A DNA stretch of 61,538 bases from positions 1-61,538 of the forward strand of contig NZ_FOQF01000023.1 of NCBI RefSeq assembly GCF_900113655.1, read 5' to 3'. The notes under the pieces are model-generated. The model saw only the letters and a list, made by a program, of their open reading frames with translations. It was not told where the DNA came from and did not search any database. Positions 45,878-61,538 of this stretch are shown here, one piece after another (the first letter of the stretch is position 1; each line of letters opens with the position of its first letter). Made by a program: the position numbers and the translations under genes. The DNA comes from Pseudobutyrivibrio sp. OR37. GTDB taxonomy: Bacteria; Bacillota; Clostridia; Lachnospirales; Lachnospiraceae.

Positions 45878-48800
45878 ATGTCAAACACGAGAATGAAGAA
45901 GAAGGTTCTGTCGCTTGCACTGGCTACAATTACAGCATTTACAGCTTTGCCAGGTAGTATGGGGACAATTGATGTGTTGGCTAAGGAAGACAAGGGATCA
46001 AGCCAAACAAAGACCACAGAGGAAGCTGATGGAAGCTATACATTATCCAATGATTATTTCTCTGTAAACATAGGTAAATACGGCCAAATTAGAAAGCTGT
46101 ATATAGTGGGGGATAAATATCCTACAAACTATGTGATGAACGAAGAAAACGCTCCAGCACAGGGGGCTAGCAGCACCCACCAATGGATGGGAGAGCTGAT
46201 GCTTGCAACTAAATTTGCTGATGGTGCATATACGGAAGGATACACAAGCCAGTCCGACTCGGATAGAACCATCGAACTTAAAGATAACAAGGTAATAGTT
46301 ACATACGGCGGGAATGCAACTGAAGCCAAAGGAATAAAAGGTTATCAGGTTAAGGAAACCTATACTCTTGTTAATGACAGGATAAAGTGGGACATCGAAA
46401 TAGAAAATAAAAGTGAAGATGTCCTTACCGTAGGGGATTTAGGACTTCCTATTACGTTTAATGAGTATTGGTCAGGTGGAGATGAAATCTACGAGACAAG
46501 AGTTGTAGACCATAGCTTTGTGGGAAAGAATTCTTCATACATATATGCGACTCGTCCTAGTGGGCAGGGGCAGTATGTATTACTTACTCCAGATGATGCA
46601 ACTGATGCCAGCTTTGAGTATCAGGACCATTGGCGTGTTGAGGAAAGAAGCGCCAATGAAAAATCCTGGTGTCAGGACCAGGATGGATGGGCAAGTGGTC
46701 TGAATGTTTTCTATATCCATTCAGATGCCATTAAGAAGACAAATCGAGGATATCTGGATAATACTACATTAAAGCTGAAGAAGGGTGAGTCTAAAAAGTA
46801 TTCTTTCGATTTTAGTCCTGTTGATAATGAAGACGATATGAAGTCTACCCTTTATGAAGAGGGAATTATAGATGCGGTGGCTGTTCCTGGTATGACATTT
46901 GCTAAGAACATGCCAGCAAAAATGTATCTTCATACAAAGTATGATGCTAAGGATTTGAAGGTAAGTATTAAATGTCCTCATGAGTTGAATCTATTTGAGG
47001 ACAATAAGAATAGTGTCAGCAATAATCTTCCATGCGAAAAAAGCGAAGCTGGTACTTATGCAAAATACGAATCCACAAAACTTATAGACGGCGAACAATA
47101 TCATATATACGATATTGCCTTTGATGATTTAGGACAAAACGATGTAGTGGTTTCCTATGACAATGGTACAAAGGAAACAGAGCTACAATTCTACATTATG
47201 GATGATGTCAGCAAAGCATTGAATACTCATTCGCAGTTCATGGTAGATAATACCCAGTGGGATGCTGAAGGCGAGCTATATGATAAGGTTTTTGATGATT
47301 GGATGATGGATACCAAATCAAAGCGCGGTGTTTTCAATGGCTATTGGGGTTGGGGCGATGATTGGGGATTGACCCACGGTGAATATATTGCTGAAAAGAA
47401 TGTTTACATCCCAGTAGAAAGGGAAATAACTGCTATTGATGAGTATTTGGACACTGCAATATGGCATGGACTTATGCAGGAGCATCAAGAGGATTATCTT
47501 ATACATGACTTCCAGATGAAGGAGCCAAATGATACACCTACATACCGTGGCTATGCATATCCTCACATCTACAACACCTACTATTCAATGTACAAGATTG
47601 CTAGTAAATATCCTAATATTGTAGATTACATCGAGGATAAGGATACTTATCTATTGAGAGCCTATAACATAATGAAGGCTCTGTATTCAGACGGGGTATA
47701 TTATAACTGGTCAACAGGTGTAATGGGCGAGCTAACTACTCCTGACATTATCGCCTCTTTAAAGGCAGAAGGATATACCGATGAGGCTGCTGAGATTGAA
47801 GATATTATGGCAAGAAAGTATAAGAATTTCTCTAGCACCAAGTATCCTTATGGCTCAGAGTATTCTTATGATAATACAGGTGAGGAAGCTGTATATACTC
47901 TTGCTAAGCTAAATCTTGGAAGTGATGAAGCTAATGCCCTAAGCATGATGCAAAAGATTGATTTGAAAACAAGGGCATGTAGAGGACTTCAGCCTGTATG
48001 GTATCACTACGCTAATCCTACCACTATCTGTGGCGAAAGCTGGTGGAACTTCCAGTATACAGCTGCTCTTGCCGGATACTGCATGGATGATTATTTGCGA
48101 CTTGAAAACAATGGATTAAATTCTATTGAATCGGCTGAAGCAGAGAGGGTTAATTACGCAGCAAAGCTGGCAAACCTTACATGCATCAATTCAGGTCAGA
48201 TAGATGCTGACCCAGAAAATATAGGTACCGTAGCCTGGACTTATCAAAGTGAAATGGGAAATCTAGGTGGACAGGGAACTGGCGGTGGAAAGATTCACAA
48301 TGGCTGGAGACAGATGGCTGGCGAGGCAGATTTGGGTCTCTTTGGAGCGCTTCAGATTCTATCTGCAGATGTTGCTACAGATCCAGTATTTGGTTTATTT
48401 GGATATGGCTGTAATGTAACAGATAATGGTGAAAGCTATTCAATAGAGCCACTTGATGGATTGAATACTAGATTAAATCTAATCGATGATGGTTGTTATG
48501 TAGAGCTTGATAGAGACAGATACGTAAATGCGATAATTGCCAAAGATTGCAGTGATGTAAAGCTTACTGTAACAAATTTAGAAAGAACAGAGCATAACAC
48601 AGATATCGACTTAACAGGATTAGCAGATGGTTGCTACACCATTCTTGTCGATGGTAAAGAGCGCGGAACCTTTAAGGCAACAAAGAATGAGACAGTGACA
48701 GTATCTGTTCCACTGGGCAAAAAGGATACATCTGTAGTTGAGTTCAAGATTGGTGCAGCTGCCAAAAATACAGCTCCTATTGTAGATGCAGGTAAGGATA

Positions 48801-51800
48801 TTGAAACATATCTTCCAGAAGTAGATGGTATAGATGAGGCTACAATAGTCATTGACTTCAATCTTTCTGCAAATCAGGAGAATGGAACAAGACTTATCGA
48901 ATTTGGTGATTTAGATGAAAACTACTTGTATGTGAACTTCAAAGGAAATAATCAGTTAAGCATCGCTGCTACTGACATGAAGTCAAAGAAGCTGAAAACA
49001 GTGGATACCGTATATGCGATATCCCCAGAATATGATAAGAAGCTTGTACTGACAAATGATAAGGGCGAGATTGTTGTTTATCTTGATGGAGACAAAATAG
49101 CTACATTGGATTCTGGATTCGTATTTTCGAAGATGGGAGATGCTCAGAGAAATTACCTGGGACGTTCACACGAGGAATCTATTAGCTTCTTAAATGGCAA
49201 AATCAAAGGCTTTAGCATGTATTCAAAAGCATTTGATGAAGAAGAGGTTTCAAAGCTTTTTGGAGATTTGAAGGATAGAGAAATAGTATCTATAAAGGAT
49301 GCAGCAGTTGTAACCAAGATAAACGAAGCACCTAAGCTTCCAAAAGAAGTTAGCGCCCTGTATTCAGATGGCGTATACAGAAATGTGGAAGTGAAATGGG
49401 ATGAAGTATCTGCAGAATCTTATGGTGCTAAGGGCGTGTTTACTGTAGAAGGTTCAGTAGATAAATCTACAGTTAAGGCCAAAGCTAATGTTGTTGTAGT
49501 TGATGGAAAAGAGGTAAATCTTGCAGCGTATGCAACACCTAGCGCTATCGTAAACACTCCACAGGATTTAGGTGGTGTAGCTGGTTTAAATGATGGTTAT
49601 GACCCATCAGCTTCAAATGATACTTCCCATGGAGTATGGCACAACTGGTTAGGAGGCGCTCAGGGCGCACCAGCATGGGTAATGTACACTTGGGATGATG
49701 AGGTTATTATTACTGGCCAGGATGCATACTATTTCAAGGATAATGGAGGAAACTTCTCACCTGCAGCTGTAAAGCTGGAGTATCTTGAGGGTGATGAGTG
49801 GAAGGAATGCGACATAGTAGAAGGTCTTGGAACAGAACTTGATAAATACAACACTACAACTATCAAACCTATTCAAACAACAGCACTTAGAATGACTCTT
49901 AATCCTAAGACTTTAGGCTGTGGTGTAATTGAGTGGAAAGTATATGGATTTAAAGAAGGTGCTGTGGATAAGTCAGCATTGAACAGTGCTATTTCAAGAG
50001 CTGAAAAGATTGATCCATTCTTTGTCAAAGCTGGATATTCAAATATGAAGTCTATTTTGGCAGAGGCTAAGGAATTGGTTACAAAGATGGGTGTGTCTCA
50101 AAAAGAATTAGATGAGATGACTGATAGACTTAATAATGCAGTTAGTTCCCTTGATATGGATACCAACCTGGCATTAGGTGCAGCAGTTTCAACAAGCTAT
50201 GTTTCTAGCTGGGAAACATTAGGAGCAGTAAATGATGGAGTGTCATCATCAGCATCCATGGAAAAGCCTGCAACTGGTGCTTATGGTTCATGGGGCAACA
50301 CATCAGAATATGAGACCATTACATACACCTGGGATAAAAAGATAAGCATTAGCAAATCGGCTATTTACTTCTGGAAGGATAATGATTCTGAGGAAGTAGT
50401 GGGAATTCAATTCCCTAAGAATTACACCATTAGTTACAAGGACGGTGATGATTGGAAAGAAGTAAAGGATGCATCAGGCTATGGTCTTGAAGCTGATAAA
50501 TATAATGTTACATCCTTCAAGCCTGTTATGACTGATGGATTAAGGATTCAGTTAAATAAGAAGGAAGCTAATAACTCTGGTGTAGGTGTAATTGAATGGG
50601 CAGTTCTAGGTGGTGAGCCAGTGGAAGAAGAGCTTGAAGAGCTAGAAAAGGAAGATGTGGAAAAACTGCTAGAAAAGGATGTGGAGTCAGAAGAAAAGAA
50701 AGAAGAGAAGGAGTCTGATAGCGAAGAATCTGTTGAATTACCTGATGAAGAAGCTACTGAAAAAGATGCTGAAACAACAGGGGAAAACACAGATGAAGTT
50801 GAATCTGTCACAGCAGAGGATTCTAAGCTGAAAGTTACAACAGATGAAGTAGTGCCAGAGGAAAAGCTGACAGAATTAGAAGAAGCTACAGGAACAACCT
50901 TACTTTTAGGAGCTGTTGCAACTACAAGACTAAGAGCATCAGCTATTGACGATGGATATCCTAATTCTTCATTGGATTATAAGTGGACAGTAAAGAGCAA
51001 GCCAAACAATGCAGCGGTAGCTATAGACAAGGCTAATCAGGCAATCACTGATGTAAGCTTTAATCAAGCTGGTAACTATGTACTTACACTTACAGTCTCA
51101 GATGGAGAACTTTCATCATCTGATGATATCAAGATTAAGGTTGCAAAAGGTGATAAGCTACCTGAAAAGCTTTGCGAATATGATTTCACTGAAAAGTCAT
51201 TAGACAAGAAAGCTAGATTAGTTAAGGATATCAATGATACTGGATATGATTCAAGCTATAGCTACAATCCAAATCCTGTATTCGCAACAGAGGATGGAGC
51301 AAGCTTTGTTAACATGACTGGAGGCTTCTGCGGATATGTTAAGCTTACAGACGAATTAACAAAGGGCAAGGTAAAAGAAGCCAAAACAAAGGAGCCTATC
51401 ATTAATCCTGTCAATCCTTTCAAGCCATCACAAGGTGGAAGCACAGGTACCACACCAGTTAATCATGAGGTAAACAAAGCTGTAAGCCCAGCAAAGGACA
51501 TCACAGTAATTGATACTCCTAAGGTGCCTGCTGCTGGAAATGTAGCAGTAAATAAAAAGTCAGGTGCTGGAAATAACAAGAAGGCAAAAGCTGATGATAG
51601 TGTAGAGGTGGATGAAAATGCTAATGATACTTCTGTAGAAGAGAATAATGTAAATAGAGAAACAAAAGAAGATATCTCACAAAGTGAGGAAAACATATCT
51701 GATGAAGAAACACCTACTACAGGCGAGAAAAAAGATAGTAATGCAATTCTGATATTAATATTCGTTGTACTGGCACTAATTCTTGTAAGTGGCGGATATG

Positions 51801-51838
51801 CAATATTCGCAAAGACATTGAAAAAGGGCAATAAGTAA
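45878..51838 (+). CDS. giant surface protein with DUF5695, LamG and F5/8-type modules (cluster II)
   Basis: A 1986-residue protein. Order: signal peptide (1-36); DUF5695 domain (about 45-900, beginning YTLSNDYFSVNIGKYGQIRK), probably an (alpha/alpha)6-type carbohydrate-active region; LamG-like (970-1130); Ig-like Big_4 type (1130-1210); F5/8-type C module (1210-1365); FIVAR-like helical spacer (1365-1430); second F5/8-type module (1430-1585); acidic stretch (1585-1650); PKD/Ig-like (1665-1765); a LamG start that breaks off (1770-1830); linker; TPTTG, hydrophobic helix and KKGNK tail. TPTTG resembles a sorting signal without its leading Leu. It likely acts on the plant glycan imported by cluster II; the reaction is unknown. 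Confidence 0.8.
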   Translation: MSNTRMKKKVLSLALATITAFTALPGSMGTIDVLAKEDKGSSQTKTTEEADGSYTLSNDYFSVNIGKYGQIRKLYIVGDKYPTNYVMNEENAPAQGASSTHQWMGELMLATKFADGAYTEGYTSQSDSDRTIELKDNKVIVTYGGNATEAKGIKGYQVKETYTLVNDRIKWDIEIENKSEDVLTVGDLGLPITFNEYWSGGDEIYETRVVDHSFVGKNSSYIYATRPSGQGQYVLLTPDDATDASFEYQDHWRVEERSANEKSWCQDQDGWASGLNVFYIHSDAIKKTNRGYLDNTTLKLKKGESKKYSFDFSPVDNEDDMKSTLYEEGIIDAVAVPGMTFAKNMPAKMYLHTKYDAKDLKVSIKCPHELNLFEDNKNSVSNNLPCEKSEAGTYAKYESTKLIDGEQYHIYDIAFDDLGQNDVVVSYDNGTKETELQFYIMDDVSKALNTHSQFMVDNTQWDAEGELYDKVFDDWMMDTKSKRGVFNGYWGWGDDWGLTHGEYIAEKNVYIPVEREITAIDEYLDTAIWHGLMQEHQEDYLIHDFQMKEPNDTPTYRGYAYPHIYNTYYSMYKIASKYPNIVDYIEDKDTYLLRAYNIMKALYSDGVYYNWSTGVMGELTTPDIIASLKAEGYTDEAAEIEDIMARKYKNFSSTKYPYGSEYSYDNTGEEAVYTLAKLNLGSDEANALSMMQKIDLKTRACRGLQPVWYHYANPTTICGESWWNFQYTAALAGYCMDDYLRLENNGLNSIESAEAERVNYAAKLANLTCINSGQIDADPENIGTVAWTYQSEMGNLGGQGTGGGKIHNGWRQMAGEADLGLFGALQILSADVATDPVFGLFGYGCNVTDNGESYSIEPLDGLNTRLNLIDDGCYVELDRDRYVNAIIAKDCSDVKLTVTNLERTEHNTDIDLTGLADGCYTILVDGKERGTFKATKNETVTVSVPLGKKDTSVVEFKIGAAAKNTAPIVDAGKDIETYLPEVDGIDEATIVIDFNLSANQENGTRLIEFGDLDENYLYVNFKGNNQLSIAATDMKSKKLKTVDTVYAISPEYDKKLVLTNDKGEIVVYLDGDKIATLDSGFVFSKMGDAQRNYLGRSHEESISFLNGKIKGFSMYSKAFDEEEVSKLFGDLKDREIVSIKDAAVVTKINEAPKLPKEVSALYSDGVYRNVEVKWDEVSAESYGAKGVFTVEGSVDKSTVKAKANVVVVDGKEVNLAAYATPSAIVNTPQDLGGVAGLNDGYDPSASNDTSHGVWHNWLGGAQGAPAWVMYTWDDEVIITGQDAYYFKDNGGNFSPAAVKLEYLEGDEWKECDIVEGLGTELDKYNTTTIKPIQTTALRMTLNPKTLGCGVIEWKVYGFKEGAVDKSALNSAISRAEKIDPFFVKAGYSNMKSILAEAKELVTKMGVSQKELDEMTDRLNNAVSSLDMDTNLALGAAVSTSYVSSWETLGAVNDGVSSSASMEKPATGAYGSWGNTSEYETITYTWDKKISISKSAIYFWKDNDSEEVVGIQFPKNYTISYKDGDDWKEVKDASGYGLEADKYNVTSFKPVMTDGLRIQLNKKEANNSGVGVIEWAVLGGEPVEEELEELEKEDVEKLLEKDVESEEKKEEKESDSEESVELPDEEATEKDAETTGENTDEVESVTAEDSKLKVTTDEVVPEEKLTELEEATGTTLLLGAVATTRLRASAIDDGYPNSSLDYKWTVKSKPNNAAVAIDKANQAITDVSFNQAGNYVLTLTVSDGELSSSDDIKIKVAKGDKLPEKLCEYDFTEKSLDKKARLVKDINDTGYDSSYSYNPNPVFATEDGASFVNMTGGFCGYVKLTDELTKGKVKEAKTKEPIINPVNPFKPSQGGSTGTTPVNHEVNKAVSPAKDITVIDTPKVPAAGNVAVNKKSGAGNNKKAKADDSVEVDENANDTSVEENNVNRETKEDISQSEENISDEETPTTGEKKDSNAILILIFVVLALILVSGGYAIFAKTLKKGNK

Positions 51839-52014: not shown

Positions 52015-52464
52015 ATGCTGAAAATATTTTATGGAACAGTGGAAGAAAATCTTTATGGGCCAGCTTGGTTTAATAATAACTATGAACAAGAATGGTTCGA
52101 AGATACATTTGTGCAGGATATGGTAAGAGACGTTGATAAAACAACCTATAAAGAGGGGGAAGTTTTCGAAAGCAGTGTTTTAGGGGCTATCCCGCCAGAA
52201 AAACTATCTGGTGGAGTTAAAACACTTATTTCAATATATAAGAATCCAACTCTTGTTTTCGATGCAACTAGTTGTGGAGATAATTGTGCAATATGGCTTC
52301 AAAAAATTGGTCAAAAAGAAGATATTACAGTTACCTTACGCTATGCTATGAGATTTGAAGAAATAAATGATTTTGAAATATGCCTGTTGAATACAAATAG
52401 CATATATAAAGATAAAAAAGAATTTACTCTTGCAGCATTAACTGTTATAGATGAGGTCTTATAA
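52015..52464 (+). CDS. DUF4869-domain protein
   Basis: A 149-residue soluble protein. The pattern of DUF4869 is clear: LKIFYGTVEENLYGPAWFNN at the start, VLGAIPPEKLSGGVKTLIS in the middle and DATSCGDNCAIWLQKI after it. Function is unknown. AAGAGGTG precedes the ATG. Its stop overlaps the P-loop protein gene by one base (TAATG), so the two are probably made together in fixed ratio. Local codon use is more AT-rich than in the sugar clusters, hinting at a different origin. Confidence 0.8.
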   Translation: MLKIFYGTVEENLYGPAWFNNNYEQEWFEDTFVQDMVRDVDKTTYKEGEVFESSVLGAIPPEKLSGGVKTLISIYKNPTLVFDATSCGDNCAIWLQKIGQKEDITVTLRYAMRFEEINDFEICLLNTNSIYKDKKEFTLAALTVIDEVL

Positions 52465-53429
52465 TGATAGGAAGTCACCATATTATAGTAGAGACTAAAA
52501 AAATAAAATATGAGTTTGAAATCAAAAGGAATATTACGGTAATCCGTGGTGATAGTGCAACAGGAAAAACCACGTTGATTGATTTGCTTAGTCAATTTGC
52601 TAGATTCCAGGGGAGAACAGGTGTCAAAGTAGAGTCAGATGTTCCTTGTGTGGTATATGCTGATGGGTTAATTAGCTGGCAGGAAGCAATTAAATCTGTC
52701 TCAGACTCAATTATCTTCATTGACGAGGACTATGATTTTATTAAAACGAAGGAGTTTGCCAGTGTAATAAAAAATACATCAAACTATTATGTGCTGATAA
52801 CCCGTGATTATCTTAAATGTCTGCCATATAGCGTAAACGAAGTTTATGGTATAAGAAATTCTGGTAAGTACAATTTCCCGCAACGTGTATATAATGAATT
52901 TTATCCTTTGTATGATGATGTTGAAAATAAAAAAATATCGGCAAAGTGTTTAATAGTTGAAGATAGTAAATCAGGCTACCAGTTTTATTCAGTAGCGGTT
53001 CCCGACATTTCTTGCATAAGCGCAGATGGAAATTCGAATATTTATAAAAAATTATTGTCACTAGATACTAAAGATGGTTGTTATGTTATAGCTGATGGAG
53101 CTGCGTTTGGCGCTTTTATAGATAAAATCCTTCAGCTTAGAGATATGGGATATAAAATAGGATTGATTTTACCAGAATCCTTCGAGTGGTTTATCTTGAA
53201 ATCAAAAGTAGTAGATATTAATGATTTGCAAAAAATATTGGAAACACCAGAAGATTATATTGATTCTAGAATATATTTTAGTTGGGAGAGATTTTTTACA
53301 GAACTGCTGGAAAAAGGGACAAGCGGATCTATAGCGGAATACCATAAGGATGAGCTGTCTCAGTATTATTTAGAAGGAAAGAACAGGGAAGCAATCCTTA
53401 ATACAGTAAAGCTTTTTTTGGAGGAATAA
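52464..53429 (+). CDS. P-loop NTPase partner of DUF4869
   Basis: A 321-residue protein with a Walker A motif GDSATGKTTL (residues 29-38) after a short beta-rich start, and a Walker B-like IIFIDED (83-89). The C-terminal two thirds (from about residue 150) have no motif I know, but end in a helical segment. The short N-terminal NTPase resembles an ABC/AAA-type ATP-binding core lacking a signature motif. Role unknown; a pair of a small DUF and an NTPase in AT-rich DNA could be a defence or regulatory module, which is speculation. Confidence 0.75.
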   Translation: MIGSHHIIVETKKIKYEFEIKRNITVIRGDSATGKTTLIDLLSQFARFQGRTGVKVESDVPCVVYADGLISWQEAIKSVSDSIIFIDEDYDFIKTKEFASVIKNTSNYYVLITRDYLKCLPYSVNEVYGIRNSGKYNFPQRVYNEFYPLYDDVENKKISAKCLIVEDSKSGYQFYSVAVPDISCISADGNSNIYKKLLSLDTKDGCYVIADGAAFGAFIDKILQLRDMGYKIGLILPESFEWFILKSKVVDINDLQKILETPEDYIDSRIYFSWERFFTELLEKGTSGSIAEYHKDELSQYYLEGKNREAILNTVKLFLEE

Positions 53430-55551: not shown

Positions 55552-57234
55552 ATGTACAATGATGATTATAAGCGCTGGTTAGCAGCGGATTTAGATGATC
55601 CAGATTTAAAGCCAGAGCTCACAAAGATTGAGGGAAATGACGAAGAAATCAAGGATAGATTTGCAGTAGCACTTGCTTTTGGTACTGCTGGTCTTCGTGG
55701 TGTGCTTGGTGCAGGTACAAATAGAATGAACGTATATGTAGTACGTCAGGCTACACAGGGACTTGCAAACTGGGTTAAGACTCAGGGCGGCAATCAGACA
55801 GTTGCTATCAGCTATGATAGCCGTATCAAGAGCGATGTTTTCGCTAAGGCTGCAGCTGGTGTTCTTGCTGCTAATGGTATCAATGTTCGTATTTACGATG
55901 CACTTATGCCAGTTCCAGCACTTTCATTTGCTACTAGATACTATAATTGTAATGCAGGTATCATGGTTACAGCTTCACACAACCCTGCTAAATATAATGG
56001 ATACAAGGCTTACGGTCCAGACGGATGCCAGATGACAGATGATGCAGCAGCTATCGTATATGCTGAGATTCAGAAGACAGATGTCCTCACAGGTGCAAAG
56101 GTCATGTCTTTCGCTGAGGGTGTTGAGAAGGGACTTATCAAGTTCGTTGGCGATGATTGCAAGAACGCATTCTACGCAGCAATCGAAGAGCGTCAGGTTC
56201 GTCCAGGTCTTTGCAAGACAGCTGGTCTTAAGCTTGTTTACAGCCCACTTAACGGTTCTGGTTTAGTTCCAGTTACACGTGTTCTTAACGATATTGGTAT
56301 CACAGATATCACAATCGTTCCTGAACAGGAATATCCAAACGGATACTTCACAACATGTAGCTATCCAAACCCAGAAATCTTCGAGGCACTTGAGCTTGGT
56401 CTTGAGCTTGCTAAGAAAGAGGGCGCAGATTTAATGCTTGCTACTGACCCAGATGCAGACCGTGTTGGTATCGCTATGAAGTGTCCAGACGGAAGCTATG
56501 AGCTTGTTTCTGGTAACGAGGTTGGTGTACTTCTTCTTGATTACATTGCAGCAGGACGTATCGAAAAGGGCACAATGCCAAAGAACCCTGTAGCAGTTAA
56601 ATCAATCGTTTCTACACCACTTGCAGATGCAGTTGCAGAGCACTACGGCGTAGAGCTTCGTTCAGTTCTTACAGGCTTTAAGTGGATTGGTGATCAGATT
56701 GCTGGTCTTGAGGCTGATGGAGAAGTAGATAGATTCATCTTCGGTTTCGAGGAGTCTTACGGATATCTTGCTGGTCCTTACGTACGTGATAAGGATGCAG
56801 TTATCGGTTCAATGCTTATCTGCGAGATGGCTGCTTACTACCGCAGCATCGGAAGCTCTATCAAGCAGCGTCTTGAGGAGATTTACGCTGAGTATGGCCG
56901 TTACCTCAACAAGGTAGATTCATTTGAATTCCCAGGCCTTTCAGGTATGGATACAATGGCAGGCATCATGAGCCAGCTTCGCGAGAACCCACCAAAGGAT
57001 ATCGCAGGCATCGCTGTAACAAAGGTTACAGATTACAAGAACACAGCTGAGACAGGTCTTCCTTCAGCAAACGTTCTTATTTATGGTCTTGAGAATGGAT
57101 GCACAGTTGTTGTTCGTCCTTCAGGTACAGAGCCAAAGATTAAGACTTACTTCACAACAAAGGGTAAGGATCTTGCTGAGGCACAGGCTATGAAGGATAA
57201 GCTTGCAGAAGCTCTTAAGCCACTATTTAGCTAA
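55552..57234 (+). CDS. phosphoglucomutase/phosphomannomutase
   Basis: A 560-residue alpha-D-phosphohexomutase. The phosphoserine loop TASHNPAKYNGYK (Ser142), metal loop DPDADRVG, sugar-binding FGFEESYGYL and phosphate-binding RPSGTEPKIKTY are all present. It interconverts hexose 1- and 6-phosphates for glycogen, nucleotide-sugar and galactose metabolism. ATG 55552 lies nine bases after AAGGAG; an ATG at 55543 abuts that site. Strong codon bias indicates high expression. Confidence 0.93.
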   Translation: MYNDDYKRWLAADLDDPDLKPELTKIEGNDEEIKDRFAVALAFGTAGLRGVLGAGTNRMNVYVVRQATQGLANWVKTQGGNQTVAISYDSRIKSDVFAKAAAGVLAANGINVRIYDALMPVPALSFATRYYNCNAGIMVTASHNPAKYNGYKAYGPDGCQMTDDAAAIVYAEIQKTDVLTGAKVMSFAEGVEKGLIKFVGDDCKNAFYAAIEERQVRPGLCKTAGLKLVYSPLNGSGLVPVTRVLNDIGITDITIVPEQEYPNGYFTTCSYPNPEIFEALELGLELAKKEGADLMLATDPDADRVGIAMKCPDGSYELVSGNEVGVLLLDYIAAGRIEKGTMPKNPVAVKSIVSTPLADAVAEHYGVELRSVLTGFKWIGDQIAGLEADGEVDRFIFGFEESYGYLAGPYVRDKDAVIGSMLICEMAAYYRSIGSSIKQRLEEIYAEYGRYLNKVDSFEFPGLSGMDTMAGIMSQLRENPPKDIAGIAVTKVTDYKNTAETGLPSANVLIYGLENGCTVVVRPSGTEPKIKTYFTTKGKDLAEAQAMKDKLAEALKPLFS

Positions 57235-57240
57235 AAAATT

Positions 57241-57816
57241 ATGAAAGAATTAGATGAGAGATACAGCACAGCGGAGGAGGCTATTATAGGAGCCTTCCTC
57301 CTGCTGAGTAAAGAAAAGCAATTTGAAAAAATCACCGTGGCCGATGTGGTCAAGAAATCAGGGGTGGTTCGAAGCACATTTTACAATCATTATGAGAATG
57401 TGCCAGCTTTGATTTGCGCTGCAGAAGACAAAACCATAAATGATATTTTTCAATTGATGGAGAGCTTTCATCCAAAGGATGACCATCAGCTGTGTCATTC
57501 ATATTTTCTGGCGATTTGCAATTACACCAAGGATAATCCCTTTTTAACCAGCTTATTGCACAGTCCAAGAGGGGATAGCTTCCTTGAAAAGGCCATGCTT
57601 ATGTTTCATCGTTATGTTAATAGGGTAAGCGAAAACGATGCCATCATAATTGGCGATAAACAGCGCTTTTCTTATTACATAGCAGCAACAATCGGAATAA
57701 ATCTTGGTGTCCTCCATAAGTGGACAGCAGAGGATTGCAAAACAGCTCCAGAAGAAATAGCTGATATTTTAACAACCGTTTTCTTAAATGGAGTACTTCC
57801 ATTTATGGTATCTTAA
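57241..57816 (+). CDS. TetR-family regulator
   Basis: A 191-residue protein with an N-terminal TetR HTH (EKITVADVVKKSGVVRSTFYN then HYENVPALI) and a helical C-terminal ligand domain. It starts six bases after phosphoglucomutase and is probably cotranscribed with it, yet it is convergent with, and overlaps by four bases, the ligase gene of the condensation/carrier/ligase set. Either group could be its target. Ligand unknown. Confidence 0.85.
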   Translation: MKELDERYSTAEEAIIGAFLLLSKEKQFEKITVADVVKKSGVVRSTFYNHYENVPALICAAEDKTINDIFQLMESFHPKDDHQLCHSYFLAICNYTKDNPFLTSLLHSPRGDSFLEKAMLMFHRYVNRVSENDAIIIGDKQRFSYYIAATIGINLGVLHKWTAEDCKTAPEEIADILTTVFLNGVLPFMVS

Positions 57817-59342
57817 GCTATTTCAGTTCGTTTGATTTTTCCAGTAGTATTTCTAATAAAAGGCTCAGTCCTAATTACTAGACTAGTGATATGTCGGTAG
57901 CTAGGCTGGGCTTTATTATATTTATCAATAAAATCCTGAAGCGTTCTGTTGATATCTGCAGGTGCCATAAGCTTCCTTTGTGCATAATCCATATCTGGAT
58001 ATATGTGAGCGGTAAGCCCTGTATTGTTGCCTGATATGATAACCTCAGACACCAAAGGGTTCAAAGCAATTCTATTTTCTATCTCTTCAGGAGAAATGTT
58101 TTCCCCATTTGACATAATGATAAGATTTTTAACACGTCCGTTGATAAATAGATAGCCATCCTCATCTATGTAGCCCTTGTCACCAGTGTGCAGCCATCCA
58201 TCGGTAAATACAGCACGGGTTTCAGATGGCATTTCAAAATAGCCTTTCATAACGCTGGTGCCACGCACCATAATTTCGTCGTTTTCGATTTTGATTTCGA
58301 TGTTGTCCAGTGGCTTTCCAATGGAACCAGGCTTGTGGCAATCAGGAGTGTTGGTGGTGATTACAGGAGAGCATTCCGACATTCCATAGCCTTCCAATAT
58401 ATCAACATCATATTTTTTAAACTCTTCAATATAAAACGGATCAAGATGGGCACCGCCGGTGAAGATGATTCGCAAGTTACCGCCAAATACATTTTGTTTA
58501 ACAGCCTCCACAGGTGCAGCAGGATTAGCGGACAATCTTTTATAAATAGATTCAATCATCAGTGGCACCATAAGGATTACCTCTGGTTTGAAGATGCTCA
58601 TATTTCTAACCAAATGCATGAATGAATCGTTTATGCATAAGATAGAGCCCAATGAAAATCCCTTTAGCCAGTCCATAACAAGGCAGTAGGCGTGGTGGAT
58701 TGGAAGTACGCTCATCATTACGCAGCCAGGGTCCACCTGGTAATGAACGTTTGCCACATTGTCGAAAAGATTTTTCTGGGTGAGCATTACGCCCTTGCTT
58801 TTTCCAGTGGTGCCAGAGGTGAAGATGATTGTGGCAAGGTCATTTGGCGCTGACGCCTTAACATCAACGGAGGTATTGCCCAGGTTCATAAGCTCTGCCA
58901 ATGCACCAATCTGTCCATTTTGAACAAATTGATCGTAGGAGTCGTTCAAAAGCCAAATCTGTTTAAGGTTAGGACATAGCTTAAGAGCCTGTTCGGCCAG
59001 TCCAATCAGCCTTGGACTTAAGAATAAAACCTTGGTATGAGAGCGGTTTAATAAATCAATCAAATCCTCTGCTGGCAACAGTGCATCAAGGGGTACTGCC
59101 ACATTATCGCCAGTTACAATGGCTAGATAGCTGGCAACCCACTGGACGCTGGTTTCACCAATCAGTGCCACATGGTCAGATGATATGCCAGTTTTAGCCA
59201 GCCCGCCACGAATTAAGCGAATCATTTTATCAAGGCTGTCGTAGGTAACCTCCTTGATTTCCTTTTTATCTAAATATCTAATTGCTGTCAGCTGCTTGTA
59301 AGATTTGGCAGCATTTTCCCAAAGTGTACGCAAATTATCCAT
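57813..59342 (-). CDS. AMP-dependent acyl/amino acid ligase of the stand-alone trio
   Basis: A 509-residue ANL-superfamily enzyme. Core motifs: TIIFTSGTTGKSKG (171-184), LEGYGMSECSPVI, WLHTGDKGYIDEDGYLFINGR, SNGENISPEEIENRI and the catalytic Lys in TTGKIKRTE at the C-terminus. It should activate a carboxylate as an adenylate and load it on the adjacent carrier protein, whose stop overlaps its start by one base (TAATG). Whether the substrate is a fatty acid or an amino acid cannot be decided; the general architecture is closer to acyl-CoA synthetases. Confidence 0.88.
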   Translation of the reverse strand: MDNLRTLWENAAKSYKQLTAIRYLDKKEIKEVTYDSLDKMIRLIRGGLAKTGISSDHVALIGETSVQWVASYLAIVTGDNVAVPLDALLPAEDLIDLLNRSHTKVLFLSPRLIGLAEQALKLCPNLKQIWLLNDSYDQFVQNGQIGALAELMNLGNTSVDVKASAPNDLATIIFTSGTTGKSKGVMLTQKNLFDNVANVHYQVDPGCVMMSVLPIHHAYCLVMDWLKGFSLGSILCINDSFMHLVRNMSIFKPEVILMVPLMIESIYKRLSANPAAPVEAVKQNVFGGNLRIIFTGGAHLDPFYIEEFKKYDVDILEGYGMSECSPVITTNTPDCHKPGSIGKPLDNIEIKIENDEIMVRGTSVMKGYFEMPSETRAVFTDGWLHTGDKGYIDEDGYLFINGRVKNLIIMSNGENISPEEIENRIALNPLVSEVIISGNNTGLTAHIYPDMDYAQRKLMAPADINRTLQDFIDKYNKAQPSYRHITSLVIRTEPFIRNTTGKIKRTEIA

Positions 59343-59581
59343 TATGATGCCTCCTGTAAATCCTGAATCATTGAAAGAGCCTCGTCGATAGTGCGAATAT
59401 TTACGATACGCTCCTGCTGAAGCTCAATATCAAATTCGTCCTCCAATTCTCCTAAAAATGACATGAAATCAAGAGAACTAAAATCCAAATCTTCTCTGAA
59501 TCGGCTGTCTCCCTTCAGATTATCAGGTGAAACCTGGCAGTACTGTGAAACTAATTCCTTAAACTGTTTTTCCATTGACAT
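59342..59581 (-). CDS. stand-alone acyl/peptidyl carrier protein
   Basis: A 79-residue carrier protein with the phosphopantetheine attachment motif DFSSLDFMSFL (Ser36 before Leu37), preceded by SRFREDLDF and followed by the acidic ELEDEFDIEL helix. It is distinct from a housekeeping AcpP by sequence and context. The start at 59581 is used because GGAGGG lies upstream; a longer reading from 59596 would begin within that site. It sits between the ligase and the condensation-like gene in one operon. Confidence 0.92.
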   Translation of the reverse strand: MSMEKQFKELVSQYCQVSPDNLKGDSRFREDLDFSSLDFMSFLGELEDEFDIELQQERIVNIRTIDEALSMIQDLQEAS

Positions 59582-59601
59582 AACTAATCCCTCCACTTCG
59601 T

Positions 59602-60984
59602 TTATACGATATTTATAATTTCTCCAATAGTAAGATTTGGCTGCTCCACTCCTCTAAAGATTATTCGCATTAGATAATAGTTGAAAAGCTCCACCTGTTT
59701 TTCTGTCAGGTCTGCCACCTGATAATGATATGAAAAATTCATTCCGCCATCTTCTGTGTGAGACACAGTCAGATACATCTTTTTGGTGGCAGCACCGTTT
59801 GCAAACCATTTGCAATACATAGGAATGTCTGTTAGATATGGGTTTTCCATCTTCACAGGAAGAGGCTGATAGGTGAGATAGCAGCTTTCGTAGGTTGTGT
59901 TCTTTGGCGTGCCATATCTTTTTTCAATCTCCTCATAAATCAAATCCGGGTCGTAGTTGGAATGCATGTAGATTTGATTTTGCATGTTTTGAATTTGATA
60001 AGCAGCCTCCAGAAAATCTGTGTCATCTTCAATCACGGTGCGGCAAGGGAACATTATGGTTCGGCTTCCGCCGGAGGTCCACTCATCGTGAGTAGACCTG
60101 CGGGAAATAAAATTCTGTATGGAAATATCCTTTTGCCCATTGTTCACCTTTGAAAGATATGTGCGGATGCCAAGCAGTAGAAGATTTGTCATGGAAAGCT
60201 GATGGTTTTGGCAAAAATCAAACAGCTGCTTTGCCCCATCCGCTTCCAGCTTATAATCCTTCACCTCAACGAAAAGATTTCTAAGCTCAATATCTGCACA
60301 ATTGAGAGCGGGGTTATTATGGGCGCGCCTTGAGGCCGCGAGTGTAGCTGGGCCTGCAATATCACTGTAGATAGGCTCGCCCCATTTATCTATTAAATCA
60401 TCCCAAAACTTTTTATCTTTTAAAAAGCGCTTCTCATTTGAGGCCTTTTTCAAATCGTTTTGAAGAACTGTTTCATAATCTGCCAAATCTGCAGGAAGAG
60501 GGGCATCGAATCTGAAATGTGTGTAGAGAGACATAATGTCGTTTGTAAGAACTGTCACCCCGCAGGAATCGATAAGCCTGTGATCCATGTGTAGGAAAAA
60601 TCCATTGTAGCCATCGGGAAGCTTCATTAGAAAGATTTCAAACATAGGAATATCATCACCATCGAAGGTGTTGTAGGCCCAGGACTGCATTGTCTCATCC
60701 GCCTTATCCATGGTCATATCAGATAAATCCTTCAGTGGAATATCGTAATTTTCGTCCTCTGAAAGATATTGAAGAATATCACCATTTTTATCAGGCTTTG
60801 TAAATCGCACTCGCATACAGCCGTAGCGTTTAATCTCCAGCTGAATACATTTTTTCAGCAAATCAAAATCCAGATTAGCCTGCAAGGATGCAACAATGCT
60901 TAGGCCAGAAACCTGCTGCGTACCGTATTTACGAATCCAGTTGTAGTGCATTTTCTGCGCCGGGGTAAGTGGGTATTTTTTCAT
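59602..60984 (-). CDS. stand-alone NRPS condensation-domain-like acyltransferase
   Basis: A 460-residue protein of the condensation/PapA/WS-DGAT superfamily. The start YPLTPAQKMHYNWIRKYGT is a typical condensation C1 motif. The active-site motif is FLHMDHRLIDSCGV, with His135 and Asp139 of HxxxD kept, although the first His of the usual HHxxxDG is Asp and the final Gly is Ser. FISRRSTHDE and RTIMFPCRT lie in the C-terminal half. It would join a carrier-bound acyl group to an amine or alcohol. GGAG precedes the ATG; the gene leads the operon. Confidence 0.85.
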   Translation of the reverse strand: MKKYPLTPAQKMHYNWIRKYGTQQVSGLSIVASLQANLDFDLLKKCIQLEIKRYGCMRVRFTKPDKNGDILQYLSEDENYDIPLKDLSDMTMDKADETMQSWAYNTFDGDDIPMFEIFLMKLPDGYNGFFLHMDHRLIDSCGVTVLTNDIMSLYTHFRFDAPLPADLADYETVLQNDLKKASNEKRFLKDKKFWDDLIDKWGEPIYSDIAGPATLAASRRAHNNPALNCADIELRNLFVEVKDYKLEADGAKQLFDFCQNHQLSMTNLLLLGIRTYLSKVNNGQKDISIQNFISRRSTHDEWTSGGSRTIMFPCRTVIEDDTDFLEAAYQIQNMQNQIYMHSNYDPDLIYEEIEKRYGTPKNTTYESCYLTYQPLPVKMENPYLTDIPMYCKWFANGAATKKMYLTVSHTEDGGMNFSYHYQVADLTEKQVELFNYYLMRIIFRGVEQPNLTIGEIINIV

Positions 60985-61092
60985 AACTTCATCTCCATCA
61001 TTTTTGTTTTAAAGGAAGTTAACACATTTGAAATGGCAATACTAGAGACTAGAAGACTTATTAAACAAAACGAAAGAAAGTGTCCACGACAT

Positions 61093-61098
61093 ATCATA
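61093..61098 (-). promoter_or_regulatory. possible extended -10 promoter of the trio operon
   Basis: On the minus strand TGTGTATGAT places TATGAT at 61098-61093 with an upstream TG, about 110 bases before the start of the condensation-like gene. No good -35 box is visible. Confidence 0.35.
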
Positions 61099-61132
61099 CA
61101 CATCCCCTAAAAATGTTCGATAACACCAAATA

Positions 61133-61160
61133 TTGACACATTTTTGGTAATGAGTATGAT
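61133..61160 (+). promoter_or_regulatory. predicted promoter pointing right
   Basis: TTGACA (61133-61138), 16 bases, TATGAT (61155-61160). It faces the right-hand insertion sequence and no gene on the + strand follows it in the window, so it may be an outward remnant, drive a short RNA, or be fortuitous. The 340-base stretch from 60985 to 61324 otherwise holds only short inverted repeats (ATTGCG/CGCAAT near 61194-61224, CGCGC/GCGCG at 61247-61260, GACTTA/TAAGTC near 61309-61324). Confidence 0.45.
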
Positions 61161-61324
61161 TAAACATAGGGGTTAATAAAGATTATTAGGTAATTGCGAA
61201 ACTCGCTGATGCTCGTCCGCAATCTTGATTATAAAATCGGATATTTCGCGCATAGGCGCGGAATTACTTTTGAAAGATAATTTTAGGCGCACTAAATAAG
61301 CCTGACTTATGAAGTTGGTAAGTC

Positions 61325-61538
61325 CTAAGCGATTAAAGGTTTCAGGCTACGGACAAATTCATGGTGGTTAATTTTATCAGCCAAAATGACAGTTACAAGC
61401 TGAGTTATTCCAGCAAGTATCAGATCAGCATGAAGAGTTTTTTCGTTTTGAGTTCTGCGTCCAGCAAGGCAAAGGTTTTCTTTGATGTGATTAATGTCTC
61501 GCTCAACCGCGGTCCTAATTTTATAAGTTGATTCCCAT
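61325..61538 (-). CDS. DDE-type transposase, C-terminal fragment cut by the window edge
   Basis: The last 70 codons of a transposase read leftward from the window edge to a TAG at 61325-61327. The fragment begins WESTYKIRTAVERDINHIKE and continues NLCLAGRRTQNEKTLHADL and LILAGITQLVTVILADKI. YKIRTAVERDINHIK with its Glu fits the final acidic region of DDE transposases of the IS4/IS1182-like type. The first part of the gene lies outside the window, so intactness is unknown. Confidence 0.8.
   Translation of the reverse strand, partial: WESTYKIRTAVERDINHIKENLCLAGRRTQNEKTLHADLILAGITQLVTVILADKINHHEFVRSLKPLIA

What the first reader, a model, noticed from the sequence alone, without database searches (positions are those of the whole stretch)
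57813..60984. Compact stand-alone condensation, carrier and ligase operon
Three adjacent minus-strand genes encode separate proteins for what an NRPS module does in one chain: activation (AMP ligase), carrier (Ser36) and condensation (His135/Asp139). No thioesterase, reductase, phosphopantetheinyl transferase or transporter is adjacent, and the condensation active site is variant (DHRLIDS instead of HHxxxDG). One-base overlap and short spacing show a real operon. The product could be an N-acyl amino acid, an acylated amine or a small lipid. It is flanked by an insertion sequence and a TetR gene. I know of no characterised system with exactly this trio.
Basis: partly seen in the sequence, partly recalled or inferred. 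Interest (0 to 1): 0.75.

Follow-up and report, generated by a model that had tools for sequence, protein, structure and literature searches.

The report
Regulated fatty acid amide operon
These genes are a known kind of small gut-bacterial pathway that joins fatty acids to amines, here found with a conserved regulator gene and DNA switch that suggest the cell makes it on demand, perhaps to neutralise toxic fatty acids.

Summary
The three genes are real and correctly placed, but the trio is not unknown. It is the fatty acid amide (FAA, "CTA") operon of gut Clostridia. The condensation protein is 52% identical over 457 residues to OaaC of Coprococcus eutactus (PDB 12KH), and its "variant" site is that family's usual one: DHxxxDS in 93 of 94 rows of its clade. 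C, carrier and ligase stand together in 69 of 69 loci long enough to judge.

New here, and not mentioned in the two held papers' text: a TetR gene accompanies the trio in 61 of 63 judgeable loci, and 9-13-9 dyads lie upstream of C, in the window at 61092-61122 and 61055-61089. The two TetR-less loci are the only two without a dyad, and their genomes hold no close TetR copy. Many relatives add an alpha/beta hydrolase, more distant ones also an SCP2 protein. Best reading: an inducible fatty-acyl amide synthase, plausibly for fatty-acid detoxification. The amine is unknown and may differ from OaaC's.

The parts
59602..60984 (-). Stand-alone condensation protein (C; OaaC-like), 460 aa; His135 and Asp139 in DHRLIDS
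   Evidence: PF00668 E 3.3e-38; 12KH E 2.3e-170, 51.9% identity; tree
59342..59581 (-). Acyl carrier protein, 79 aa, Ser36 for phosphopantetheine (longer ORF reaches 59596 with a GTG start)
   Evidence: PF00550 E 2.1e-9
57813..59342 (-). Fatty acyl-AMP ligase (A; OaaA-like), 509 aa
   Evidence: PF00501 E 5.6e-62; best NCBIfam model a long-chain-fatty-acid-CoA ligase subfamily, below its cut-off; amino-acid adenylation model far below its cut-off
57241..57816 (+). TetR_C_8 regulator, convergent with the ligase; conserved fourth gene of the cassette
   Evidence: PF14278 E 5.9e-9; present in 61 of 63 judgeable loci
61092..61122 (-). Dyad O1, TATCGAACA-N13-TGTATGATA, 108-138 bp upstream of C (proposed operator)
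   Evidence: 16 of 18 positions of the clade consensus; only such site in the genome at up to 1 mismatch, counting its reverse reading as the same site
61055..61089 (-). Dyad-like O2, TCGTGGACA-N13-TGTTTAATAAGTC, next to O1 (proposed second operator)
   Evidence: 17 of 19 positions; coordinates
61121..61175 (+). Remnant of the old right-hand neighbour's upstream region; marks the outer border of the cassette
   Evidence: 44 of 56 columns match the sequence after pgm in operon-free genome G004; TTGACA-16-TATGAT, 11 of 12
61190..61538 (.). Fragment of a multi-copy insertion sequence at the contig end (true left end not determined); not part of the system
   Evidence: transposase-like ORF 61325-61537, no family above its cut-off in Pfam or NCBIfam

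Best explanation
It is a fatty acid amide (FAA/CTA) operon with its own regulator. The ligase activates a fatty acid with ATP and loads it onto the holo carrier (Ser36). The condensation protein, using His135, lets a small free amine attack the acyl thioester and releases an N-acyl amine, so no thioesterase is needed. The convergent TetR protein most likely binds the dyads upstream of C and represses the operon until a ligand, probably a fatty acid or acyl thioester, removes it. The likely benefit to the cell is disposal of growth-inhibiting free fatty acids. Shown here: family membership, gene set, active-site residues, purifying selection, the conserved dyads and their tie to TetR. Inferred: the chemistry (from OaaC), repression, its ligand, detoxification (about one in two). 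Unknown: the amine.
For: C matches OaaC (12KH) over its whole length and falls with it in one clade, support 100/99, away from seven modular NRPS C domains. Trio order C-ACP-A in 69 of 69 judgeable loci. DHxxxDS in 93 of 94 clade rows (91 distinct sequences). The ligase resembles fatty-acyl and oxalyl ligases. Fold hits include the starter C domain RzmA, CDA C1 and stand-alone VibH. OaaA/ACP/C make N-acyl amides in vitro; CTA+ Blautia and Coprococcus make more acyl amines, and amines rescue B. wexlerae from oleic or linoleic acid. Unsaturated fatty acids are toxic to Butyrivibrio fibrisolvens (PMC2836310, abstract only). TetR in 61 of 63 loci. O1 at 14 of 18 or better in 53 of 81 upstream regions against 0 of 81 shuffled, with a sharp optimum at spacer 13; a 9-13-9 dyad at 13 of 19 or better in 79 of 81. 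TetR and dyad both present in 61, both absent in 2, of 63. Genome-wide, the four dyad-less clade genomes checked (those of L048, L073, L118, L121) hold no TetR match above 40% identity and none longer than 168 residues. In the genus the 11 exact O1 sites all lie just upstream of a C gene, none in the 14 genomes without an FAA-type C.
Against: No product, expression or DNA binding was measured. The dyad consensus was drawn from the same loci in which it was counted. Outside that set: L119 and L120 (TetR adjacent) carry a dyad (15 of 19; in L120 a symmetric one with spacer 12), L118 and L121 (no TetR) carry none, but L117 (no TetR in 4.5 kb behind the ligase) scores 13; its genome holds only a TetR fragment of 73 residues at 60% on another contig. 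The two TetR-less loci of the 63 are both sheep MAGs labelled Blautia. 5 of 15 genus genomes with C have no exact O1. The TetR model is mediocre (pLDDT 78, pTM 0.60), and its fold hits mix FadR/FasR with EthR and MtrR. Detoxification was shown in Blautia, without a gene deletion in the sections I read. 14 of 29 genus genomes show no FAA-type C, so the operon is dispensable.
Confidence: 0.88

Rival explanations
1. The acyl acceptor is not a small free amine but a lipid, sugar or wall component, so the operon modifies the cell envelope.
For: 71 positions are fixed in at least 95% of 88 close rows but differ in OaaC (at 70 of them the window differs too), so the acceptor may differ. A sister clade of C proteins without a neighbouring ligase or carrier exists (L122-L124).
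Against: The relatives described in the two papers I read use free amines; no gene between pgm and the contig-end IS other than TetR and the trio.
Confidence: 0.08
2. The product is made as a signal to the host (GPCR ligand), not for the bacterium's own protection.
For: FAAs activate human receptors (PMC13142362; PMC13060934 abstract).
Against: At least 17 of the 80 record titles name an animal source (deer, sheep, goat, buffalo, mouse, rabbit), so selection for a human receptor is unlikely; the operon has its own regulator. Both can hold: the host effect can be a side effect.
Confidence: 0.15
3. The TetR gene is a passenger, and the dyads serve another regulator such as a global fatty-acid one.
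For: In the window TetR starts 6 bp after pgm and might be read through from it; no shared motif was found upstream of TetR itself; L117 has a weak dyad without an adjacent TetR.
Against: TetR stays with the trio when the order changes (L066, TetR upstream); co-absence of TetR and dyad in 63 loci and in four whole genomes; in the genus exact dyads occur only at the operon, which argues against a global regulon.
Confidence: 0.17

Closest known systems
Oaa system of Coprococcus eutactus (OaaA, OaaACP, OaaC; PDB 12KH)
   Same: Three stand-alone proteins with the same roles; C 51.9% identical over 457 residues; DHxxxDS site (PMC13142362).
   Different: 71 positions fixed in the window's subfamily differ in OaaC, for example residue 132, two before the site (His here, Lys in OaaC), so the amine may not be aminovalerate. 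OaaA and OaaACP sequences and the Oaa gene neighbourhood were not available to me.
CTA operon of Blautia wexlerae and Coprococcus catus (PMC13060934)
   Same: Order C, carrier (T), A in one operon; Lachnospiraceae.
   Different: Their sequences were not seen; TetR, regulator, SCP2 and lipase and hydrolase do not occur in that text.
FAA gene clusters of Chang et al. 2021, Nat Microbiol 6:792
   Same: Founding description of the family, as told by the two papers above.
   Different: Paper not held; I saw nothing of it, so it may already describe the regulator or the neighbours.
VibH (vibriobactin), stand-alone condensation enzyme
   Same: Stand-alone C fold, in the fold list (1l5a, rank 40); that it uses a free amine is recalled.
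   Different: Aryl rather than fatty acyl donor (recalled); other family.

Membership tests
FAA/CTA operon of Clostridia | Stand-alone C protein in the FAA clade, apart from modular NRPS C domains | tested here: met
   Tree of 71 rows: window with OaaC 100/99; seven NRPS C domains on another branch 100/100
FAA/CTA operon of Clostridia | (D/H)HxxxD(S/A/G) active site with conserved second His and Asp | tested here: met
   DHRLIDS, His135, Asp139
FAA/CTA operon of Clostridia | Stand-alone carrier with phosphopantetheine Ser between C and A | tested here: met
   carrier behind C in 74 of 74 judgeable loci
FAA/CTA operon of Clostridia | Ligase activates a fatty acid | tested here: inconclusive
   Sequence nearest fatty-acyl and oxalyl ligases, not amino-acid A domains; substrate not assayed
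FAA/CTA operon of Clostridia | Makes N-acyl amides from a free small amine | not testable with these tools
   Needs biochemistry
FAA/CTA operon of Clostridia | C is a homodimer opened by holo-ACP (shown for OaaC) | not tested
   Only a monomer model was made
Modular NRPS | C, A and PCP in one multidomain chain with acceptor PCP | tested here: not met
   Three separate ORFs; only one PF00668 match in the genome
TetR-type acyl-CoA sensors (FadR/FasR kind) | Acyl-CoA or fatty-acid binding C-terminal domain | tested here: inconclusive
   FadR and FasR among top fold hits but so are EthR and MtrR, TM 0.57-0.67; by sequence the profile finds 3kkc, 4mk6 and other TetR proteins first

The most novel reading that the evidence does not exclude
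The window shows a self-regulated version of the FAA pathway: a present-or-absent four-gene cassette (C, carrier, ligase, dedicated TetR) with paired 9-13-9 operators, in which free fatty acids or their acyl thioesters induce their own conversion to N-acyl amines. Its subfamily would use one uniform amine, different from aminovalerate. Bacterial 'endocannabinoids' would then be products of an inducible fatty-acid resistance circuit in rumen and gut Lachnospiraceae, with regulators recruited separately in the two main clades.
Probability: 0.35. Interest if true: 0.65.

Novelty: new member of a known kind. Interest (0 to 1): 0.42.

Why it matters
Gut bacterial fatty acid amides act on human receptors, and why bacteria make them is open; the Blautia preprint proposes fatty-acid detoxification. 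A dedicated regulator with a conserved, located operator turns that into a direct test: which molecule lifts repression. The subfamily also reaches Butyrivibrio and Pseudobutyrivibrio, rumen genera for which unsaturated fatty acid toxicity is a practical question in animal nutrition.

Tried and rejected
Uncharacterised trio: rejected by 12KH and the two papers. Modular NRPS remnant: rejected by the tree and by the genome holding one C domain. N-acyl amino acid from an amino-acid A domain: not favoured; TIGR01733 scores 129 against a cut-off of 317. Amine supply from within: no PF00282 decarboxylase over the cut-off in the genome; other amine routes were not searched. Missing hydrolase elsewhere in the genome: none found, while the same query rang in 9 of 14 genomes; the 5 silent ones are the own genome, two of its genus, G275 and G086. 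G275 does show a hydrolase fragment at a contig end (L117), so the query can miss fragments. Shared operator upstream of TetR: none found. Exact palindromes with 6-base arms did not reveal the operator; half-site counts in the same call and the spacer scan did. The C fold search did not list 12KH; the library ends at 2026-04-08, so I infer that 12KH came later. Search for the regulator in print: searches (listings) and passages; nothing found, but Chang et al. 2021 could not be read, so I do not claim that it is unpublished. Passages only were seen of PMC12479983, PMC9886687 and PMC11565975; they merely cite Chang et al.

Full report
Observation. The carrier most likely starts at the ATG at 59581 (79 aa, Ser36) rather than the GTG at 59596. 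Carrier stop and ligase start share one base, and C and carrier are 20 bp apart. Against Pseudobutyrivibrio relatives L002 and L003, dN/dS is 0.042 and 0.044 for C, 0.017 and 0.070 for the carrier, 0.070 and 0.064 for the ligase, and 0.070 and 0.056 for TetR; dS is 0.5-1.6, so these are rough, but all four genes are clearly kept.

Identity. A PDB sequence search gives 12KH at E 2.3e-170; the next hit is at 3.7e-8. 12KH is OaaC of Coprococcus eutactus (data-availability passage). Blastp gives 51.9% identity over 457 residues. I read the abstract, introduction, results, discussion and bioinformatic methods of that preprint (PMC13142362): OaaA loads a fatty acid on OaaACP, and OaaC joins it to aminovalerate or GABA; the C protein is a homodimer opened by holo-ACP; the family site is (D/H)HxxxDS, with Ser 42%, Ala 36% or Gly 17% in last place. 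A second preprint (PMC13060934; abstract, sections 6, 7 and 11, and passages) calls the trio the CTA operon, finds it in 36 species, all Lachnospiraceae, from 7,781 isolate genomes, shows more acyl amines in strains with it, and shows amines rescuing B. wexlerae from oleic or linoleic acid. The founding paper (Chang et al. 2021) is not held.

Relatives. A scan of species genomes found 112 relatives and kept the best 80. Counting only loci with enough flanking sequence: carrier next to C in 74 of 74, ligase in 69 of 69, TetR anywhere in 61 of 63 and convergent behind the ligase in 59 of 63, hydrolase just upstream of C in 43 of 75 and anywhere in the locus in 48 of 75. Exceptions for TetR: L048 and L073 lack it, L066 has it upstream of C, L005 has it further away. 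In 397 genomes of the family I count 53 with a C protein at 34% identity or more, one of them partial; the reported tally of 84 includes NRPS fragments. In 391 genomes of the class 20 match at E up to 1e-30, in five families. In the genus 15 of 29 have a full-length C, the reported 17 including two weak NRPS matches; a 16th, G024, has ligase and TetR at a contig end.

Tree. With 71 of the 132 C sequences in hand, the window sits next to Butyrivibrio fibrisolvens 16/4 (L021), inside a clade with OaaC at its base (100/99); a second clade of 26 rows (34-39% identity to the window) is supported 99/96; seven modular NRPS C domains form their own branch. For that second clade I fetched 26 of 38 places. 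There a divergent TetR, an SCP2 protein, the hydrolase and the trio follow one another: 21 of 26 had a divergent TetR, 18 an SCP2 protein, and 23 the hydrolase called directly; one search's 26 of 26 for the hydrolase counts 3 loci through an overlapping ORF cluster only. Three of these TetR proteins were scanned and match PF21303, two of them just under its cut-off, not the PF14278 of the window's TetR. So the two clades seem to use two different TetR proteins.

Hydrolase. One upstream protein (L012, 321 aa) matches Hydrolase_4 and Abhydrolase_1 and, weakly, an esterase (5g59) and monoglyceride lipases. It could free fatty acids for the ligase or cleave the product. The window genome has no detectable copy.

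Cassette borders. In 13 of 29 genus genomes TetR lies beside the same phosphoglucomutase/phosphomannomutase-family gene (here pgm; PF02878-PF02880) as in the window; in 15 it is not within the 1.5 kb or less seen behind pgm (two of these, G022 and G026, have C elsewhere); G018 could not be judged. In G004, whose pgm matches the window's at 100% and which has no C, pgm is followed by a MoxR-like AAA ATPase gene (PF07726); in B. fibrisolvens 16/4 the operon and TetR lie between those same two genes, and window bases 61121-61175 match the ATPase gene's upstream region. So the present-or-absent unit is TetR plus trio plus dyads, about 57235-61121. Seven other genomes without the operon at that place (one, G026, has it elsewhere) match the far flank of L002 or L003, but with further genes missing between, so they are less clean. 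The insertion sequence lies outside the unit.

Operator. Nine-base words upstream of C pointed to TATCAAACA (37 of 81 regions). Asking for TATCAAACA and TGTTTGATA at each spacer from 5 to 21, spacer 13 stands out: 53 of 81 regions at 14 of 18 or better, against at most 9 at any other spacer, and 0 of 81 shuffled (one mononucleotide shuffle each). Over 900,878 bases of the 80 loci, sites of 15 or better lie upstream of C 46 times and elsewhere 2 times. A second motif of the same 9-13-9 form, O2, reaches 13 of 19 in 79 of 81 regions (1 of 81 shuffled); in at least 13 of these the best O2 hit is the O1 site itself, so the count means at least one dyad. The two regions below are L073 and L048, the two loci without TetR. 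Among the 63 loci where TetR can be judged: 61 with both, 2 with neither, none mixed (chance 0.0005 if loci were independent, which they are not fully). In the genus, 11 exact O1 sites occur in 10 of 29 genomes, all upstream of a C gene; 5 genomes with C have no exact site; the 14 without FAA-type C have none, 3 of them having one stray site with one mismatch; the reversed-pattern control rang in 2 genomes.

Outside the 80 loci: L088, L090, L091 and L093 carry dyads (L089 and L092 do too but repeat L034 and L066). L119 and L120, with TetR, carry one. L118 and L121 carry none. L117 scores 13 without a TetR in 4.5 kb. Three orphan-C loci, the four second-clade loci tested and L136/L137 carry none. 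A whole-genome search with the window's TetR found full-length copies at 39-60% in G164, G236 and G086, a 73-residue piece at 60% in G275 (the genome of L117), and only weak, unrelated-looking matches or none in the genomes of L048, L073, L118 and L121.

Regulator. The stretch VRSTFYNHYEN in the DNA-binding half is nearly invariant in 27 sequences, fitting a conserved operator. The model's best folds are EthR, FadR with and without stearoyl-CoA, a DhaS-like protein, MtrR and FasR; this allows but does not show a fatty-acyl ligand.

How it works. Chemistry follows OaaC with good confidence. That the purpose is fatty-acid disposal rests on the Blautia preprint, on the toxicity of unsaturated fatty acids to B. 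fibrisolvens (PMC2836310, abstract), and on the dedicated regulator; I put it near one in two. The amine is open: 71 positions fixed in the window's subfamily (88 rows, three of them repeats) differ in OaaC.

Verdict. A real and conserved operon, but a new member of a known kind. The added value is the regulator, the operator and the wider gene set.

Noticed in passing
L122-L124: FAA-like C proteins (37-39% identity, site DHRIMDS) with no ligase or carrier detected in the 13.5-15.5 kb fetched, sister to the window's clade; their acyl donor is unclear.
   Followed up: partly
L136 and L137: Distant C proteins (27-28%) beside a ligase and a carrier in other gene orders, C-A-ACP and ACP-A-C.
   Followed up: no
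L125-L152 (without L136, L137): Second FAA clade with divergent TetR, SCP2 protein and alpha/beta hydrolase ahead of the trio; regions upstream of SCP2 are rich in GGTCGAAA (13 of 18), a possible operator for its different TetR.
   Followed up: partly
L021:7643-9742: In Butyrivibrio fibrisolvens 16/4 the ligase and TetR genes each appear split between frames; draft errors or decay.
   Followed up: no
window 57229-57246: TetR begins 6 bp after the pgm stop; in L002 the gap is about 170 bp. TetR may be co-transcribed with pgm in this strain.
   Followed up: no
G275:C124:5302-5520: A 73-residue piece of this TetR (60% identity) lies away from the operon in the genome of L117, perhaps a decaying or contig-cut copy.
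   Followed up: no
window 52015-53429: A DUF4869 protein followed by an overlapping P-loop protein, an unexamined pair.
   Followed up: no
window 45878-51838: A 1986-aa ORF with DUF5695, laminin-G-like and bacterial Ig-like domains, probably a secreted surface protein.
   Followed up: no
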